Shown: positions 53,135 to 60,827 of the stretch, piece after piece
How positions within the stretch are numbered: the stretch's first letter is position 1
Layout of the letters: the number at the start of each line of letters is the position of its first letter
DNA from: Thalassovita gelatinovora
GTDB taxonomy: Bacteria; Pseudomonadota; Alphaproteobacteria; Rhodobacterales; Rhodobacteraceae
Length of the DNA: 64,000 nt
Assembly (NCBI RefSeq): GCF_001458355.1
Contig: NZ_CYSA01000003.1
Location: 62,001-126,000 of the forward strand
Direction of reading: 5' to 3'
Notes under the pieces: generated by a model
Told to the model about the DNA's origin: nothing
What the model saw: only the letters and a program-made list of their open reading frames with translations
Database searches by the model: none
Program-made: the position numbers and the translations under genes

Positions 53135-55051
53135 TCAATCGCGCCCGCGGTTTTCGAACCGGGGCAGCATGGCACTGAAATCCATGCCTTTACCACCTTC
53201 GTTTTCGACGAACTGTTCATATAGCGCCTTGGCCATTTGCCCCATCGGCGTGTCAGCATCCACCGATTCTGCCGCCTGTTGTGACAACCGCAGATCCTTC
53301 AGCATCAATTCCGAGGCAAACCCGGGTTTGTAATCGTTGTCTGCTGGTGATTGCGGCCCGACACCGGGGGCCGGACAATAAGCGTTCATCGTCCAGCTAT
53401 AGCCGGACGAAGTCGATACCACATCGAACATCTTCTGCCGGTCCAGTCCCAACTTGTCGGCCAAGGCAAAGGCTTCGCAGGTCGCGATCATGGTGACGCC
53501 CAAAATCATGTTGTTGCAGATCTTGGCCGCTTGTCCGGCTCCTGAAGCACCGCAATGCACCGCCTTTTGCCCCATGATGGCAAACAAGGGTTCGACCGTG
53601 GCGAAAGCCTCTGCGCCGCCGCCAACCATGAAGGTCAAGGTTCCGGCCATCGCGCCGCCAACGCCGCCCGAAACAGGCGCGTCCAGCGCGCCCAGACCCG
53701 CAGCGTCGGCCAGAGTCGCCACGGCGCGGGCACTATCCACGTCAACAGTGGAACAATCGCACAACACCGCGCCTTGTCGCATCGCCGGGATGATCTGATC
53801 TGCGACGGATCGCAGGATATCACCGTTTGGCAGCATCGTGATGACAACATCAACGCCATTAACTGCGGCTGTGGCACTATCGGCCTTGCTGACGCCTTCG
53901 GGCATGGGGGCGGTCAGGTCGAAGCCCGTCACCTCATGCCCCGCCTTGACCAAATTGGCGGCCATTGGCCCACCCATATTGCCCAACCCGATGAATCCGA
54001 TCTTCATGGTCTTCTCCTCCTTGAAACTCAGTGTATCTTTGCCCAATGGCATCAGCATTTTCGAAACGGCGATGGCGGGCAGGCTGTCATGCTCATGACG
54101 CCATTGCGGATTGCGATCCTTGTCGATGATCTGCGCCCGGATACCTTCGAGAAAATCGCCATGTTCCATGATCCGGTGCGACACCCGGTATTCCATTTCC
54201 AACGCTTTGCGGATGGTGAGCGACGGGCCGCGCAGACGGTGGATCATTTCGATCGTTACCGCCATCGACAGTGGCGCGTTGCGCATCAGGGTTTTCAGCG
54301 TCTTGGCTGCGAAATCGCTGTCCGATGCGCGCAGGAGGTTCAGCACATCTTGCAGTGCTTCGCCGCCGAACAGGCCGTCGATATCGTCCTGTTGCGTGGC
54401 CATCGGGCTTTCAGGGGCAGGGGATGCCATATTGGTCAACACTGCGATGTCGCCGGTTTCACAAAGCCGGGCAATCAGGTCGGGCCAACGGTCCTGCGGG
54501 ATGAAATGATCGGCGAAACCTGCATAGATCGCATCACCGGGCCCCATCCGTGCAGCGGTCAGGCCCAGATATTCGCCCAATCGGCCCGGTGCACGCGCCA
54601 GCAGGAAACTGCCGCCGACATCGGGCACGAAACCGATGCCGCATTCCGGCATTGAAATCTGCGACGTTTCACAGACCACCCGGTGGCTGACATGACCACC
54701 AAGCCCAACGCCGCCGCCCATCGTGAAACCCTGCATCAAACTTATGATCGGCTTGGGATATTCCGCCAGCTTGGCATTCATCCGGTATTCGTCGCGCCAG
54801 AATTTACGGCCGTAATCGAAATCGCCCGCAATCCCGGTGCGATACATTTCGGCAATGTCGCCGCCAGCGCAGAACGCCTTGTCGCCCTCGGCATCAATCA
54901 CGATCAACGCGACATCGTCATTTTCCCGCCAGGCATCCAACGCCTTTTCAGTGGCCATGCACATGTCATAGCTAAGCGCATTCAGAGCTTTGGACCGGGT
55001 CAGGGTGATATGACCGACCCGGCCTTCGATACGGATAGAGATGTCACTCAT
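53135..55051 (-). CDS. Fused 3-hydroxyisobutyryl-CoA hydrolase / 3-hydroxyisobutyrate dehydrogenase
   Basis: One 638-codon frame. Residues 1-348 are a crotonase-fold hydrolase (FCAGGDIAEMY, QGFTMGGGVGLGGH, MPECGIGFVPDVGGS) of the 3-hydroxyisobutyryl-CoA hydrolase type. Residues 349-638 are an MmsB-type dehydrogenase (IGFIGLGNMGGPMAANL, DAPVSGGVGGAMAGTL, Lys in GQAAKICNN). They catalyse consecutive steps of valine breakdown. The linker FKEEKT is encoded by AAGGAGGAGAAGACC, a perfect ribosome site directly before the old mmsB ATG at 54007. This points to loss of the hydrolase stop codon, so both a fusion and free MmsB could be made. A sequencing error is the alternative. It overlaps the upstream acyl-CoA dehydrogenase by ATGA. 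Confidence 0.88.
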   Translation of the reverse strand: MSDISIRIEGRVGHITLTRSKALNALSYDMCMATEKALDAWRENDDVALIVIDAEGDKAFCAGGDIAEMYRTGIAGDFDYGRKFWRDEYRMNAKLAEYPKPIISLMQGFTMGGGVGLGGHVSHRVVCETSQISMPECGIGFVPDVGGSFLLARAPGRLGEYLGLTAARMGPGDAIYAGFADHFIPQDRWPDLIARLCETGDIAVLTNMASPAPESPMATQQDDIDGLFGGEALQDVLNLLRASDSDFAAKTLKTLMRNAPLSMAVTIEMIHRLRGPSLTIRKALEMEYRVSHRIMEHGDFLEGIRAQIIDKDRNPQWRHEHDSLPAIAVSKMLMPLGKDTLSFKEEKTMKIGFIGLGNMGGPMAANLVKAGHEVTGFDLTAPMPEGVSKADSATAAVNGVDVVITMLPNGDILRSVADQIIPAMRQGAVLCDCSTVDVDSARAVATLADAAGLGALDAPVSGGVGGAMAGTLTFMVGGGAEAFATVEPLFAIMGQKAVHCGASGAGQAAKICNNMILGVTMIATCEAFALADKLGLDRQKMFDVVSTSSGYSWTMNAYCPAPGVGPQSPADNDYKPGFASELMLKDLRLSQQAAESVDADTPMGQMAKALYEQFVENEGGKGMDFSAMLPRFENRGRD

Positions 55052-56193
55052 GCGCGGTCGCTCAGCAATTGACGCGCCACGATCAGGCGCATGATTTCAT
55101 TGGTGCCTTCAAGGATTTCATGAACTCGCAAATCGCGCACGATCTTTTCGATACCGTAATCGGACAGGTAGCCATAACCGCCATGCAGTTGCAGGCATTG
55201 ATTGGCGACTTTTGATCCGGTTTCGGTGACGAAACGCTTGGCCATGGCGCAGAATTTGGTGGCATCCGGTGCGCCCTGATCCAGTTTCCATGCCGCTTGC
55301 CGCAGGAAAATCCTTGCGGCCTGCATTTCTGTTTCCATATCAGCCAGACGGAATTGAAGCGCCTGAAACTGGTCGATGGATTTTCCGAAGGCTTTGCGTT
55401 CGCCCATATAGGTCAGGGTTTTGTCCAAGGCAGATTGTGCCGCCCCCAGTGAACAGGCCGAAATGTTCAGCCGCCCGCCATCAAGCCCCATCATCGCGTA
55501 TTTGAACCCCTTGCCTTCTTCCCCGACAAGATTTTTGGCCGCAACGTTGCAATCGTCGAATTGCACCTGACGGGTGGGTTGGCTTTTCCAACCCATCTTG
55601 TCTTCCAACCCACCAAAGCTGAGCCCGTCAGCGCCATTTTCGACGACCACGGTGGAAATACCCTTGGGGCCGTCATTGCTTGTCCGGCACATCACGACGT
55701 AAGCATCCGAATAGCCGCCACCGGAAATGAACGCCTTGGTCCCGTTCAGCACATACCCATCATTGCTGCGTTCGGCCCGGGTTTTAAGGGCTGCCGCGTC
55801 GCTGCCCGATCCCGGTTCGGTCAGGCAGTAGGACAAAACCGTGTCCATGCTTATCGCCGGGGTCAGATAGCGGGACTTCACATCGTCGTTGCCGAAACTG
55901 TCCAGCATCTTGGCGCACATGTTGTGGATCGACAGGAAAGACGCGACCGATGCGCAGGACATCGACAACGCTTCGAAAATCAGCGCGGCATCCAACCGTG
56001 ATAATCCCGAACCGCCGCTTTCCTCTGATACATATATACCACCGAATCCCAAGGCACCGACTTCGGTCCAAAGGTCTTTGGGGATGGTCCCTTGTCTTTC
56101 CCAGTCCAGCGCGAAGGGGGCGATTTTTTCTTCGCCGAACGCTTTCGCCATATCGAAAATGGCGGTTTGTTCCTCGGTCAGTGCGAAATCCAT
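55048..56193 (-). CDS. Acyl-CoA dehydrogenase, probably isobutyryl-CoA dehydrogenase
   Basis: A 381-aa FAD enzyme of the acyl-CoA dehydrogenase family: YCLTEPGSGSDAAALKTRA, the SGGGYSDAYVVMCRTS segment and the C-terminal QLHGGYGYLSDYGIEKIVRD...EGTNEIMRLI. Its product would feed the hydratase and then the fused hydrolase-dehydrogenase directly downstream (4-bp overlap). This makes it the valine-pathway isobutyryl-CoA dehydrogenase rather than a general one; the substrate is inferred from context. Confidence 0.88.
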   Translation of the reverse strand: MDFALTEEQTAIFDMAKAFGEEKIAPFALDWERQGTIPKDLWTEVGALGFGGIYVSEESGGSGLSRLDAALIFEALSMSCASVASFLSIHNMCAKMLDSFGNDDVKSRYLTPAISMDTVLSYCLTEPGSGSDAAALKTRAERSNDGYVLNGTKAFISGGGYSDAYVVMCRTSNDGPKGISTVVVENGADGLSFGGLEDKMGWKSQPTRQVQFDDCNVAAKNLVGEEGKGFKYAMMGLDGGRLNISACSLGAAQSALDKTLTYMGERKAFGKSIDQFQALQFRLADMETEMQAARIFLRQAAWKLDQGAPDATKFCAMAKRFVTETGSKVANQCLQLHGGYGYLSDYGIEKIVRDLRVHEILEGTNEIMRLIVARQLLSDRA

Positions 56194-58192: not shown

Positions 58193-58633
58193 TTAAGATC
58201 TGCTATGGATCTGCCCCTCGGAGAATTCGCCTTCGATCAATGCGTCCCAAGTGTCCTGTTCGATCCCCAGATGGATCAACAATTCGATGTCGGATTTGAA
58301 AATCTGAAAGGTCACCTGCGGGTATCCATCCCATAGTCCGCGTAATAATTGCGCCATTGAAACGCTGGTTTCAGTGGGGGCCAGCACAACGATCCTACCA
58401 CCATCGCGGGGGAAGTTGCTGCCGACTTTCATAACCTTGTCCGAACTGCGAGTCACATCGATCTTTATGGACTTCAGCTGAGACAGATCGAAAATGATGG
58501 TATCACTGCGTTCGAATTCTTTATCCGCAGTGAAGGTCGCCACCATGTCGTCCGCCTTGCCGAACTGGAAGGGATCCTCGAATCTGAGATAGAGGCAGCC
58601 ATGTTGGGGAAGAAATCTATATCTGGCCGGCAT
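58193..58633 (-). CDS. Uncharacterised protein, STAS-like, tandem paralogue 2
   Basis: A 146-aa soluble protein. It begins YRFLPQHGCLYLRFEDPFQ and has alternating strands and helices in the size of a STAS or SpoIIAA-like domain (TIIFDLSQLKSIKIDV, GRIVVLAPTETSV). The upstream neighbour on the same strand has the same start pattern, length and strand order (FRIIPPRGLVYVRYEG; TLAVYYAPSPLT), so the two are diverged paralogues. The start at 58633 has AGGAC upstream; a start 14 codons earlier is possible. Function unknown. Confidence 0.6.
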   Translation of the reverse strand: MPARYRFLPQHGCLYLRFEDPFQFGKADDMVATFTADKEFERSDTIIFDLSQLKSIKIDVTRSSDKVMKVGSNFPRDGGRIVVLAPTETSVSMAQLLRGLWDGYPQVTFQIFKSDIELLIHLGIEQDTWDALIEGEFSEGQIHSRS

Positions 58634-58721
58634 GTGTTGTCCTAAATTTCGAGACACGGTCGACTGTTGTTCCAATCGGGGCCGCTATGGAGTTCTTTAC
58701 TGCCACGCATTGGGGGCGTGA

Positions 58722-59141
58722 TCAGGCCGTGTGTTCCAGCAGTTCTTCAAAACTTTTCATCTGCATACCGAGAATCGAAAGCGCGCCGGCTTCGGTATCC
58801 TGAATTACAGCGACAACACCGGGAAAAGGTTCCCAGCTGCGTTCGATCATCTGTGCGATCTTGCGGGTCAAAGGGGACGGCGCATAATAGACAGCCAGAG
58901 TTTGAACACCTTCAGCAAGGAACACATCGGCCTTGCGGGCCTGCAATTCCATCAACTTGGGAAAATCGCCGTCAAATCCGGTGACACAGGCAAGATCAAT
59001 CAGTTGTTTCTGTCCTGGGCGGCAATCGGGATGGTGCGCATAGTCGTTGAACGTCGCAGCACTATCTGCGGTGTTGATGTTGCCTTCGTAACGGACATAG
59101 ACCAATCCGCGAGGCGGTATGATGCGAAAACTGACGGACAT
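58722..59141 (-). CDS. Uncharacterised protein, STAS-like, tandem paralogue 1
   Basis: A 139-aa soluble protein: FRIIPPRGLVYVRYEGNIN at the N-terminus, KQLIDLACVTGFDGD in the middle and PGVVAVIQDTEAGALSILG toward the end. The alternation of beta strands and helices fits a SpoIIAA/STAS-like fold, which in other proteins binds partners or lipids. It is first in a pair with the paralogue at 58193-58633. No enzyme motif is visible. The pair lies within the split valine locus with no evident connection. Confidence 0.6.
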   Translation of the reverse strand: MSVSFRIIPPRGLVYVRYEGNINTADSAATFNDYAHHPDCRPGQKQLIDLACVTGFDGDFPKLMELQARKADVFLAEGVQTLAVYYAPSPLTRKIAQMIERSWEPFPGVVAVIQDTEAGALSILGMQMKSFEELLEHTA

Positions 59142-59222: not shown

Positions 59223-60722
59223 TCAGTCCATCGCCTTGAAGGCAAACTCGCCGCCATCCTTGATGCCCGAGAACCACCGCGCCGTGACGGTCTTGGTCTT
59301 GGTGTAGAAACGGAACGCGTCGGGGCCATATTGGTTCAAATCGCCAAAGGCCGACTTTTTCCATCCGCCAAAGGTGAAATAGCTCAGCGGAACCGGGATC
59401 GGGAAGTTGATGCCGACCATACCGACATTCACCTTGGCAGCAAAGTCGCGCGCGGTGTCACCATCGGCTGTATAGATCGAGGTGCCGTTACCGTAATTAT
59501 TTTTCATGATCAGATCCAGCGCTTCATCATAGGACTGCGCACGCACCTGGCTCAGAACCGGGCCAAAGATTTCTTCTTTGTAGATATCCATGTCAGGGGT
59601 GACATTGTCGAACAGCGACGGACCTACAAAGAAGCCGTTTTCGTAGCCCTGCAGATTGAAATCGCGGCCATCGACCACCAGATTGGCGCCTTGATCCACG
59701 CCGCTATTGACCAAACCGTTGATCCGATCCCGCGCTTGGGCGGTGATGACCGGGCCGAAATCAACGTCGTCGCCTGCTGTATAGGGGCCGACTTTCAACG
59801 CCTCGATCCGCGGCACCAAACGTTCGATCAACGCATCTGCCGTCTTGTCACCAACCGGAACCGCGACCGAAATCGCCATGCAGCGTTCGCCTGCGGCGCC
59901 AAACCCGGCACCGACCAGAGCATCGGCGGCCTTGTCCATGTCGGCGTCGGGCATGATGATCATGTGGTTCTTTGCACCACCAAAACACTGGGCGCGTTTG
60001 CCATTGGTGGCGGCGCGGCCATAGATATACTGGGCGATCGGGGTCGAACCGACAAAGCCGACGGCCTGAATGGTGTCATTGTCGAGGATCGCATCGACGA
60101 CTTCCTTATCACCGTTAACGACTTGCAGCACACCGTCGGGCAGACCCGCTTCTTTCAGCAGTTCGGCCAGCATCAAGGACGTGGTCGGGCAGCGTTCCGA
60201 CGGTTTCAGGATCATCGCGTTGCCGCAAACCAGCGCCGGGGCCATTTTCCACAGCGGGATCATGGCAGGGAAGTTGAACGGGGTGATGCCGGCAACAACG
60301 CCAAGCGCCTGGCGCATCGAATAAAGGTCGATGCCCGGCCCGCCGTCATTCATGTATTCGCCCTTCAGCATGGCAGGGGCACCGATGCAGACTTCGACCA
60401 CTTCCAGACCACGCTGCACGTCGCCACGGGCGTCAGGCAGGGTTTTCCCATGTTCGCGGCTCAATGTTTCGGCGAGCTTGTCCATGTTTTCGTTGATCAG
60501 TGCGGCGAATTTCATCATCACACGGGCGCGGCGTTGCGGGTTGGTGGCACCCCAGGCAACTTGTGCTGCGGCGGCTTTTTCGACCGCTGCATCCAGTTCA
60601 GCTTTGGTCGCCAGCGACACTTTAGCCTGAACCTCGCCGGTGGCGGGGTTATAGACATCGGAAAAGCGCCCCGAAGTCCCTTTGACTTCCGAGCCGTCGA
60701 TATAGTGATGAATTTCTTGCAT
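59223..60722 (-). CDS. mmsA: Methylmalonate-semialdehyde dehydrogenase (acylating)
   Basis: MmsA oxidises methylmalonate semialdehyde to propionyl-CoA with NAD+ and CoA, the step after 3-hydroxyisobutyrate dehydrogenase. The 499-aa protein has the aldehyde-dehydrogenase Glu/Cys core, with the family-specific GAAGERCMAIS in which Cys is catalytic, and PFNFPAMIPLWKMAPALVCGN (landmark). ATG 60722 is preceded by GGAG. It has its own terminator and a divergent LysR gene. The other valine genes are 3 kb downstream. Confidence 0.95.
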   Translation of the reverse strand: MQEIHHYIDGSEVKGTSGRFSDVYNPATGEVQAKVSLATKAELDAAVEKAAAAQVAWGATNPQRRARVMMKFAALINENMDKLAETLSREHGKTLPDARGDVQRGLEVVEVCIGAPAMLKGEYMNDGGPGIDLYSMRQALGVVAGITPFNFPAMIPLWKMAPALVCGNAMILKPSERCPTTSLMLAELLKEAGLPDGVLQVVNGDKEVVDAILDNDTIQAVGFVGSTPIAQYIYGRAATNGKRAQCFGGAKNHMIIMPDADMDKAADALVGAGFGAAGERCMAISVAVPVGDKTADALIERLVPRIEALKVGPYTAGDDVDFGPVITAQARDRINGLVNSGVDQGANLVVDGRDFNLQGYENGFFVGPSLFDNVTPDMDIYKEEIFGPVLSQVRAQSYDEALDLIMKNNYGNGTSIYTADGDTARDFAAKVNVGMVGINFPIPVPLSYFTFGGWKKSAFGDLNQYGPDAFRFYTKTKTVTARWFSGIKDGGEFAFKAMD

Positions 60723-60827
60723 AGCACATCTCCATTGCGGGTTTGGCGTTACAATAGGCTTGCAAATTTCGTCTGAAAAGACTGAAATTATCAAAAAGAT
60801 TTTGCAATATTGCAGGATGAGGGAAGA

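What the first reader, a model, noticed from the sequence alone, without database searches (positions are those of the whole stretch)
53990..54060. Valine-pathway hydrolase fused to its next enzyme through a translated ribosome-binding site
The 348-residue hydrolase and the 290-residue MmsB, normally separate, share one frame. The joint FKEEKT is encoded by AAGGAGGAGAAGACC, an intact Shine-Dalgarno directly before the ancestral MmsB ATG. Stop-codon loss thus turned adjacent genes into a fusion of consecutive steps, while the internal start may still yield free MmsB. A TGA in another frame lies just upstream of the joint, so a one- or two-base change suffices.
Basis: partly seen in the sequence, partly recalled or inferred. 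Interest (0 to 1): 0.75.

Follow-up and report, generated by a model that had tools for sequence, protein, structure and literature searches.

The report
Fused valine-pathway enzymes, nested start retained
In this bacterium and in dozens of related genera, two neighbouring valine-breakdown genes are read as one long protein, yet the second gene's own start signal inside it has been kept almost letter for letter, which suggests that cells make both the joined and the separate enzyme.

Summary
In detail: window 53135-55051(-) is one 638-aa ORF joining 3-hydroxyisobutyryl-CoA hydrolase to 3-hydroxyisobutyrate dehydrogenase (MmsB), with an intact Shine-Dalgarno (SD) and ATG at the joint. It is no sequencing error: 45 of 394 genomes across the family, this one included, are fused; 42 more are collinear with stops. 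A local stop-codon loss, as first read, is not supported: fused/split has changed many times (tree minimum 17-20, at least 10 on well-supported branches), and the window gene is a mosaic, hydrolase half nearest a lineage with a fused member, MmsB half nearest a split congener, the switch near the joint. That the internal start still works is strongly supported by comparison, not by expression data: a start codon survives in 53 of 53 distinct fused genes, a good SD in 49; linker codons favour the SD beyond what the peptide needs; among 17 fused rows of one clade the SD core and ATG have no changes against a mean of 4.8 at 4-fold sites. Best reading: one gene, two products. Whether fusion or fission is commoner is not settled.

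The parts
53135..55051 (-). Fused ORF, 638 aa: 3-hydroxyisobutyryl-CoA hydrolase + 3-hydroxyisobutyrate dehydrogenase (MmsB)
   Evidence: only full-length match in its genome, the other listed matches at most 36% identical
54047..55051 (-). Hydrolase domain, residues 1-335
   Evidence: ECH_2 and PRK05617 matches; nearest solved chains 4j2u and 4hdt
54008..54046 (-). Hydrolase tail and linker, which holds the purine-rich SD AAGGAGGAG (54022-54014)
   Evidence: duplex energy with the anti-SD -10.0 kcal/mol (L001)
54005..54007 (-). Internal ATG (Met349), start of free MmsB
   Evidence: no changes at ATG among 17 or 19 fused rows of its clade
53135..54007 (-). MmsB domain / predicted 290-aa nested product
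   Evidence: TIGR01692 equivalog above cut-off; product not observed
55048..56193 (-). Upstream acyl-CoA dehydrogenase, overlaps the fused ORF by 4 bases; its joint with the hydrolase served as control and was never fused

Best explanation
The locus is one gene with two products. Ribosomes that start at 55051 make a 638-residue hydrolase-dehydrogenase fusion; other ribosomes start at the retained SD and ATG (54022-54005) and make free 290-residue MmsB. Because the MmsB ribosome-binding site often already lies inside the 3' end of the hydrolase gene in split relatives, losing or gaining a stop, or a small indel between SD and ATG, switches between fused and split genes while MmsB is still made. 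That would make the switch cheap and frequent. Shown here: the fusion, its spread, repeated switching on gene trees, constraint on the nucleotides of the internal start site, and a mosaic origin of the window copy. Inferred: that both products are made, and that mild consequences explain the frequency of switching.
For: Start codon at or within 9 bases of the MmsB start in 53 of 53 distinct fused genes (47 ATG and 1 TTG at the aligned place, 5 ATG 9 bases upstream; searched in frame from -15 to +6); SD energy -5 kcal/mol or better in 49 of 53, against 115 of 123 split genes and 236 of 1158 other in-frame ATGs inside the same fused ORFs. Synonymous recoding of the same linker peptides gives a mean of -4.49 against the observed -7.76, reached in 0 of 500 runs; linker Arg is AGG/AGA in 22 of 30 codons against 57 of 1748 elsewhere, linker Glu is GAG in 65 of 80 against 744 of 1615. 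Among the 19 fused rows of a 24-row clade (its 5 split rows left out), agreement between rows is 120 of 120 for AGR in the linker against 14 of 127 in the body, and 254 of 254 against 1584 of 3076 for GAG; 4-fold sites there are 51% identical, 42% expected if fully randomised (ordered pairs of rows, not independent events). On the tree of 17 of these rows GGA at -10 to -8 and ATG have 0 steps, against a mean of 4.82 at 149 four-fold columns, of which 3 had 0. In five fused rows the ATG lies 9 bases further upstream with an SD-like match 4-8 bases from it, and the old Met column is L, P or T. RNA around the internal start is weakly folded: -5.1 kcal/mol against -12.5 elsewhere in the same ORFs and -5.4 at split MmsB starts.
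Against: No proteomic, ribosome-profiling or enzyme data were available, so neither product has been seen. One fused Marivita gene (L091) has no SD (+0.1 kcal/mol) although its ATG stays, and three more are weak (-3.7 to -3.8). Part of the weak folding comes from lower G+C (0.48 against 0.64). The SD is inherited from the split arrangement; if fused rows were converted only recently from split ancestors, conservation could have built up before fusion. Under equal rates the window's own four-row group has only 0.36-0.56 probability of a fused ancestor, and the 21-row clade around it 0.34-0.36 on the joint tree; a 17-row subclade (15 fused, support 89) is inferred fused under that model, and free rates, which fit better, make all of them fused.
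Confidence: 0.75

Rival explanations
1. Only the fusion protein matters; the internal start is a relic of the separate gene that has not yet decayed.
For: The SD and ATG descend from the split arrangement seen in relatives; one fused gene has lost its SD (L091); under equal rates several fusions could be recent.
Against: Synonymous sites around it are close to randomised while the SD core and ATG have no changes; in five rows SD and ATG sit together at a shifted place while the old Met has drifted.
Confidence: 0.12
2. The SD-like linker is a programmed translational pause that lets the hydrolase domain fold before MmsB; no initiation occurs there.
For: SD-like codons are conserved in a linker between two domains.
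Against: A pause needs neither an ATG near it nor a weakly folded RNA window, and both are kept.
Confidence: 0.08
3. A sequencing or assembly error removed the stop between two ordinary genes.
For: Two congeners with a similar hydrolase have a stop or frame break here (G006, G005).
Against: 45 of 394 family genomes are fused, 53 distinct sequences with different joints.
Confidence: 0.02
4. The fusion spread because tethering channels 3-hydroxyisobutyrate or fixes a 1:1 ratio of the enzymes; the internal start is secondary. (Compatible in part with the best explanation.)
For: The neighbouring acyl-CoA dehydrogenase/hydrolase joint is fused in 0 of 163 readable loci, 33 of them in frame, while this joint is fused in 53 of 176 of the same set, so fusion is particular to this pair.
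Against: Repeated switching, and no fusion outside the family among 385 genomes of the class at E <= 1e-100, argue against a large benefit; no channel has been shown and no structure could be modelled.
Confidence: 0.2

Closest known systems
Cas8/Cas11 genes with internal in-frame translation (cas8b/cas11b of Haloferax volcanii, PMC11899642; abstract, section list and section 4.1 seen)
   Same: One reading frame gives a long protein and, from an internal Met, its C-terminal part as a separate protein
   Different: There the short product was demonstrated and serves with the long one in the same complex; here both parts are metabolic enzymes and the short product is inferred from conservation
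Bacterial N-terminal proteoform pairs mapped in Salmonella by Ribo-RET (PMC11005335; abstract and outline seen)
   Same: In-frame alternative start inside an ORF
   Different: There the pair are isoforms of one gene; here the short form is a complete second enzyme that is a separate gene in relatives
Translationally coupled, overlapping operon genes (ATGA overlaps; PMC10666635 and PMC12548453, only the start of the abstracts seen)
   Same: Many split relatives have this arrangement (stop at +1 in 19 of 37 out-of-frame pairs)
   Different: The fused form has no termination event, so termination-reinitiation cannot supply MmsB
Separate 3-hydroxyisobutyryl-CoA hydrolase and MmsB proteins (nearest solved chains 4j2u, 4hdt, 5y8g)
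   Same: Both domains, matched over nearly their whole length
   Different: Joined in one chain by a short linker

Membership tests
3-hydroxyisobutyryl-CoA hydrolase (PRK05617, ECH_2) | Scores above the curated cut-off over the whole domain | tested here: met
   379.3 bits, cut-off 274, residues 3-336; ECH_2 370.3 bits, cut-off 27.2
3-hydroxyisobutyryl-CoA hydrolase (PRK05617, ECH_2) | Hydrolase activity on 3-hydroxyisobutyryl-CoA | not testable with these tools
   No assay; the nearest solved chain, 4j2u, is deposited as 'Enoyl-CoA hydratase'
3-hydroxyisobutyrate dehydrogenase (TIGR01692) | Scores above the equivalog cut-off | tested here: met
   375.6 bits, cut-off 291.6, residues 353-629
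Genes with a nested in-frame start (one gene, two proteins) | SD and start codon at the internal site, under nucleotide-level constraint | tested here: met
   one of 53 fused rows (L091) lacks the SD
Genes with a nested in-frame start (one gene, two proteins) | Short product detected as protein | not testable with these tools
   needs ribosome profiling, N-terminomics or a blot
Sequencing or assembly artefact | Fusion confined to one assembly | tested here: not met
   45 of 394 genomes

The most novel reading that the evidence does not exclude
The nested start is obligatory: fused and free MmsB chains assemble into mixed oligomers, so the ratio of the two initiation sites sets how many hydrolase arms each dehydrogenase carries. 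The fused/split state would then be an evolutionary dial on enzyme tethering that has been turned many times in one bacterial family.
Probability: 0.2. Interest if true: 0.7.

Novelty: new member of a known kind. Interest (0 to 1): 0.5.

Why it matters
Gene fusions are commonly read as steps that create one bifunctional protein. Here a single enzyme pair has switched between fused and split many times in one family (tree minimum 17-20 changes), and the fused form still carries a constrained start site for the second enzyme. Fused genes may therefore be more reversible, and less single-product, than annotation suggests. The pair offers natural fused and split alleles for testing what fusion does to flux, and the footprint test used here could be applied to other operon fusions.

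Tried and rejected
Sequencing error: rejected by the spread over genera. Stop-codon readthrough in the in-frame split relatives: considered and set aside, because TAA, TAG and TGA all occur there (table); stop contexts were not tested formally. Direction of change: not settled. With a flat root the free two-rate model fits best with 0 fusions and 34 fissions (lnL -59.45 against -69.31 for equal rates), which implausibly makes the split outgroups into fissions; with the root fixed as split it gives 1 fusion and 30 fissions (-60.84 against -68.72); equal rates give 13 fusions and 5 fissions (134-row joint tree). The first set (176 rows; one search gave 3 fusions and 21 fissions) was enriched in in-frame pairs, so 60 further loci were fetched and used; all 60 are split out of frame. 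The counts rest on gene trees of halves that recombine, which can inflate them. Fusion outside the family: among 385 genomes of the class the only fused matches at E <= 1e-100 were G000 and G087, both of the family; weaker ones would be missed. Plasmid records: 77 of 72,556 records match; of the 20 listed, 7 are annotated at the match and show two separate genes, the rest have no annotation there; three rhizobial rows that align in one piece have a stop inside. The other 57 records were not looked at. Papers on this fusion: searches (8 of 8 listed; 6 of 6; 20 of 117 listed) showed none by title or start of abstract; only open-licence PubMed Central papers are held. General searches gave analogues; none of their listed titles names this pair.

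Full report
What is there. Window 53135-55051 on the minus strand is a single open frame of 638 codons. Residues 3-336 match 3-hydroxyisobutyryl-CoA hydrolase and residues 353-629 match 3-hydroxyisobutyrate dehydrogenase (MmsB), each above its curated NCBIfam cut-off (Pfam domains). The joint reads TTC AAG GAG GAG AAG ACC ATG, so the MmsB Shine-Dalgarno (SD) and ATG are intact inside the frame. An acyl-CoA dehydrogenase gene lies directly upstream and overlaps the ORF by four bases; an aldehyde dehydrogenase gene (59223-60794; MmsA by my inference) lies nearby. The genome shows no other close copy: the best other MmsB-like and hydrolase-like matches are 33% and 36% identical.

Is it real. In 394 genomes drawn across the family (393 genera) 87 have one collinear match at E <= 1e-200; 45 of these, the window's own included, have no stop inside and 42 have one or more (my tally of the table). 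One of the 45, G276, is cut by a contig end in the MmsB half. Named fused members include Thetidibacter halocola, Pelagimonas varians, Thalassovita taeanensis, Tropicibacter naphthalenivorans, Sulfitobacter brevis, Marivita hallyeonensis, Thalassococcus profundi and Maliponia aquimaris. Nine of ten loci titled Ruegeria are in frame with a stop six bases before the ATG; the tenth is out of frame. In 385 genomes drawn across the class no fusion was seen outside the family at E <= 1e-100. An error in one assembly is excluded as a general account.

How often it switched. Among 176 distinct hydrolase-MmsB pairs, 53 are fused, 86 split in frame and 37 split out of frame. On a tree of both proteins, linker left out, fused/not fused needs at least 20 changes (shuffled mean 45.6; 10 are forced by well-supported branches); the hydrolase tree alone gives 19 and the MmsB tree 22. 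That set was enriched in in-frame pairs, so I took the 116 family genomes whose hydrolase is most like the window's, all states included: 41 fused, 12 split in frame, 63 split out of frame. With 8 congeners and 10 outgroup rows (134 rows) the minimum is 17 changes on the joint tree and 18 on the hydrolase tree, with shuffled means of about 36. Ranking by similarity to the window's hydrolase may still favour fused rows, and recombination between the halves may inflate the counts. The direction depends on the model: free rates with a split root favour one fusion and 30 fissions, equal rates 13 fusions and 5 fissions; free rates fit better by about 8 log units. Even under equal rates a 17-row clade (15 fused, 2 split; support 89) is inferred to have been fused in common.

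A control in the same operon. The joint between the upstream acyl-CoA dehydrogenase and the hydrolase also has short overlaps. It is fused in 0 of 163 loci that could be read, although 33 of these are in frame; 13 of 176 had no readable match. The hydrolase-MmsB joint is fused in 53 of the same 176. Fusion is thus particular to this pair.

The window copy is a mosaic. Its hydrolase is nearest G007 (fused), G006 and G005 (both split); its MmsB is nearest G001 and the other congeners, which are split. The nearby NtrX and acyl-CoA dehydrogenase are also most like G001 (88% and 91%), though for the latter G005-G007 (87-88%) come before G002, G003, G004 and G008 (identities only, no tree). Holding MmsB of G000 with G005-G007 is rejected (p-AU 0.006), and so is holding its hydrolase with G001-G004 and G008 (p-AU 1.5e-5); these groups were named after the first trees had been seen, which weakens the tests. 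Sites that tell the two sources apart favour the G005-G007 side 99 to 11 in ORF bases 1-1020, and the G001 side 32 to 23 from base 1081 on, so the MmsB half leans only modestly at single sites. The change of lean falls near the joint (last G005-G007 site before it at 1025, next G001 site at 1048, internal ATG 1045-1047), but lone sites of either kind lie on both sides. The joint has the length of the G006/G007 joints, one base more than G001. The fused frame therefore most likely came in with the hydrolase segment, not by loss of a stop in place. Whether the donor was itself fused is not shown.

The nested start is kept. All 53 distinct fused genes have a start codon at the MmsB start or 9 bases before it (52 ATG, 1 TTG), and 49 of 53 have an SD of -5 kcal/mol or better. 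Split genes reach this in 115 of 123 cases, and other in-frame ATGs inside the fused ORFs in 236 of 1158. Drawing synonymous codons for the same linker peptides from each gene's own usage gives a mean of -4.49, against -7.76 observed (0 of 500 draws as strong); linker arginine is AGG or AGA in 22 of 30 codons against 57 of 1748 elsewhere. Among the 19 fused rows of one clade (5 split rows of it left out), 4-fold sites agree in 51% of comparisons (42% expected if fully randomised), while linker AGR and GAG codons agree in 120 of 120 and 254 of 254 comparisons, against 14 of 127 and 1584 of 3076 in the body (ordered pairs of rows, not independent events). On the tree of 17 of these rows the bases GGA at -10 to -8 and ATG have no changes while most bases around them change; some bases of the first MmsB codons are also unchanged, as their amino acids are conserved; 3 of 149 four-fold columns are equally still. 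In five rows of the Sulfitobacter/Roseobacter group the ATG lies 9 bases further upstream with an SD-like match at 4-8 bases (weak, -3.7, in L086), and the old Met column is L, P or T, so Met there is not needed for the fold. RNA around the internal start is weakly folded, -5.1 against -12.5 kcal/mol elsewhere in the same ORFs, as at split MmsB starts (-5.4); part of this reflects lower G+C. Exceptions: L091 (Marivita) has no SD but keeps its ATG, and three rows are weak.

Reading. In 68 of 123 split pairs the hydrolase frame already runs over or up to the MmsB SD (stop at -7 or later; tallied), so a translated ribosome-binding site is an ordinary starting point and not the novelty. What is unusual is that the frame goes on and the start is still kept. 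The simplest account is that full-length and internal initiation both occur. All 53 fused linkers have a codon one base from a stop among their last four, which makes splitting easy. Protein products were not observed, and no structure could be modelled. Known relatives in kind are Cas8/Cas11 genes with internal in-frame starts (PMC11899642, abstract and section 4.1 read) and N-terminal proteoform pairs (PMC11005335, abstract and outline). A study of frame transitions in prokaryotes notes that adjacent genes of one genome can be fused in another (PMC3711429, passages read). I saw no paper on this enzyme fusion in the searches.

Noticed in passing
window 58193-58675 and 58722-59141 (-): Two adjacent small proteins with no Pfam match that look like distant copies of each other (19% identity over 136 residues, E 2e-08).
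   Followed up: partly
window 53135-55051: The fused gene looks like a recombinant whose change of source falls near the domain joint, which hints that this joint may be a tolerant crossover point.
   Followed up: partly
L091 2501-4417: A fused Marivita gene that has no SD at the joint but keeps the ATG; its relative L087 still has an SD.
   Followed up: no
fused loci: In fused genes the SD lies mostly 5, 8 or 11 bases from the ATG (47 of 51 with a match, of 53), one codon register, whereas split genes use spacings from 4 to 12.
   Followed up: no
plasmid record NC_011370.1 8890-10760 (hit H9): A Rhizobium leguminosarum plasmid carries the split pair at 61% identity, closer to the window's family than the other rhizobial rows listed (45-49%), which hints at transfer.
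   Followed up: no
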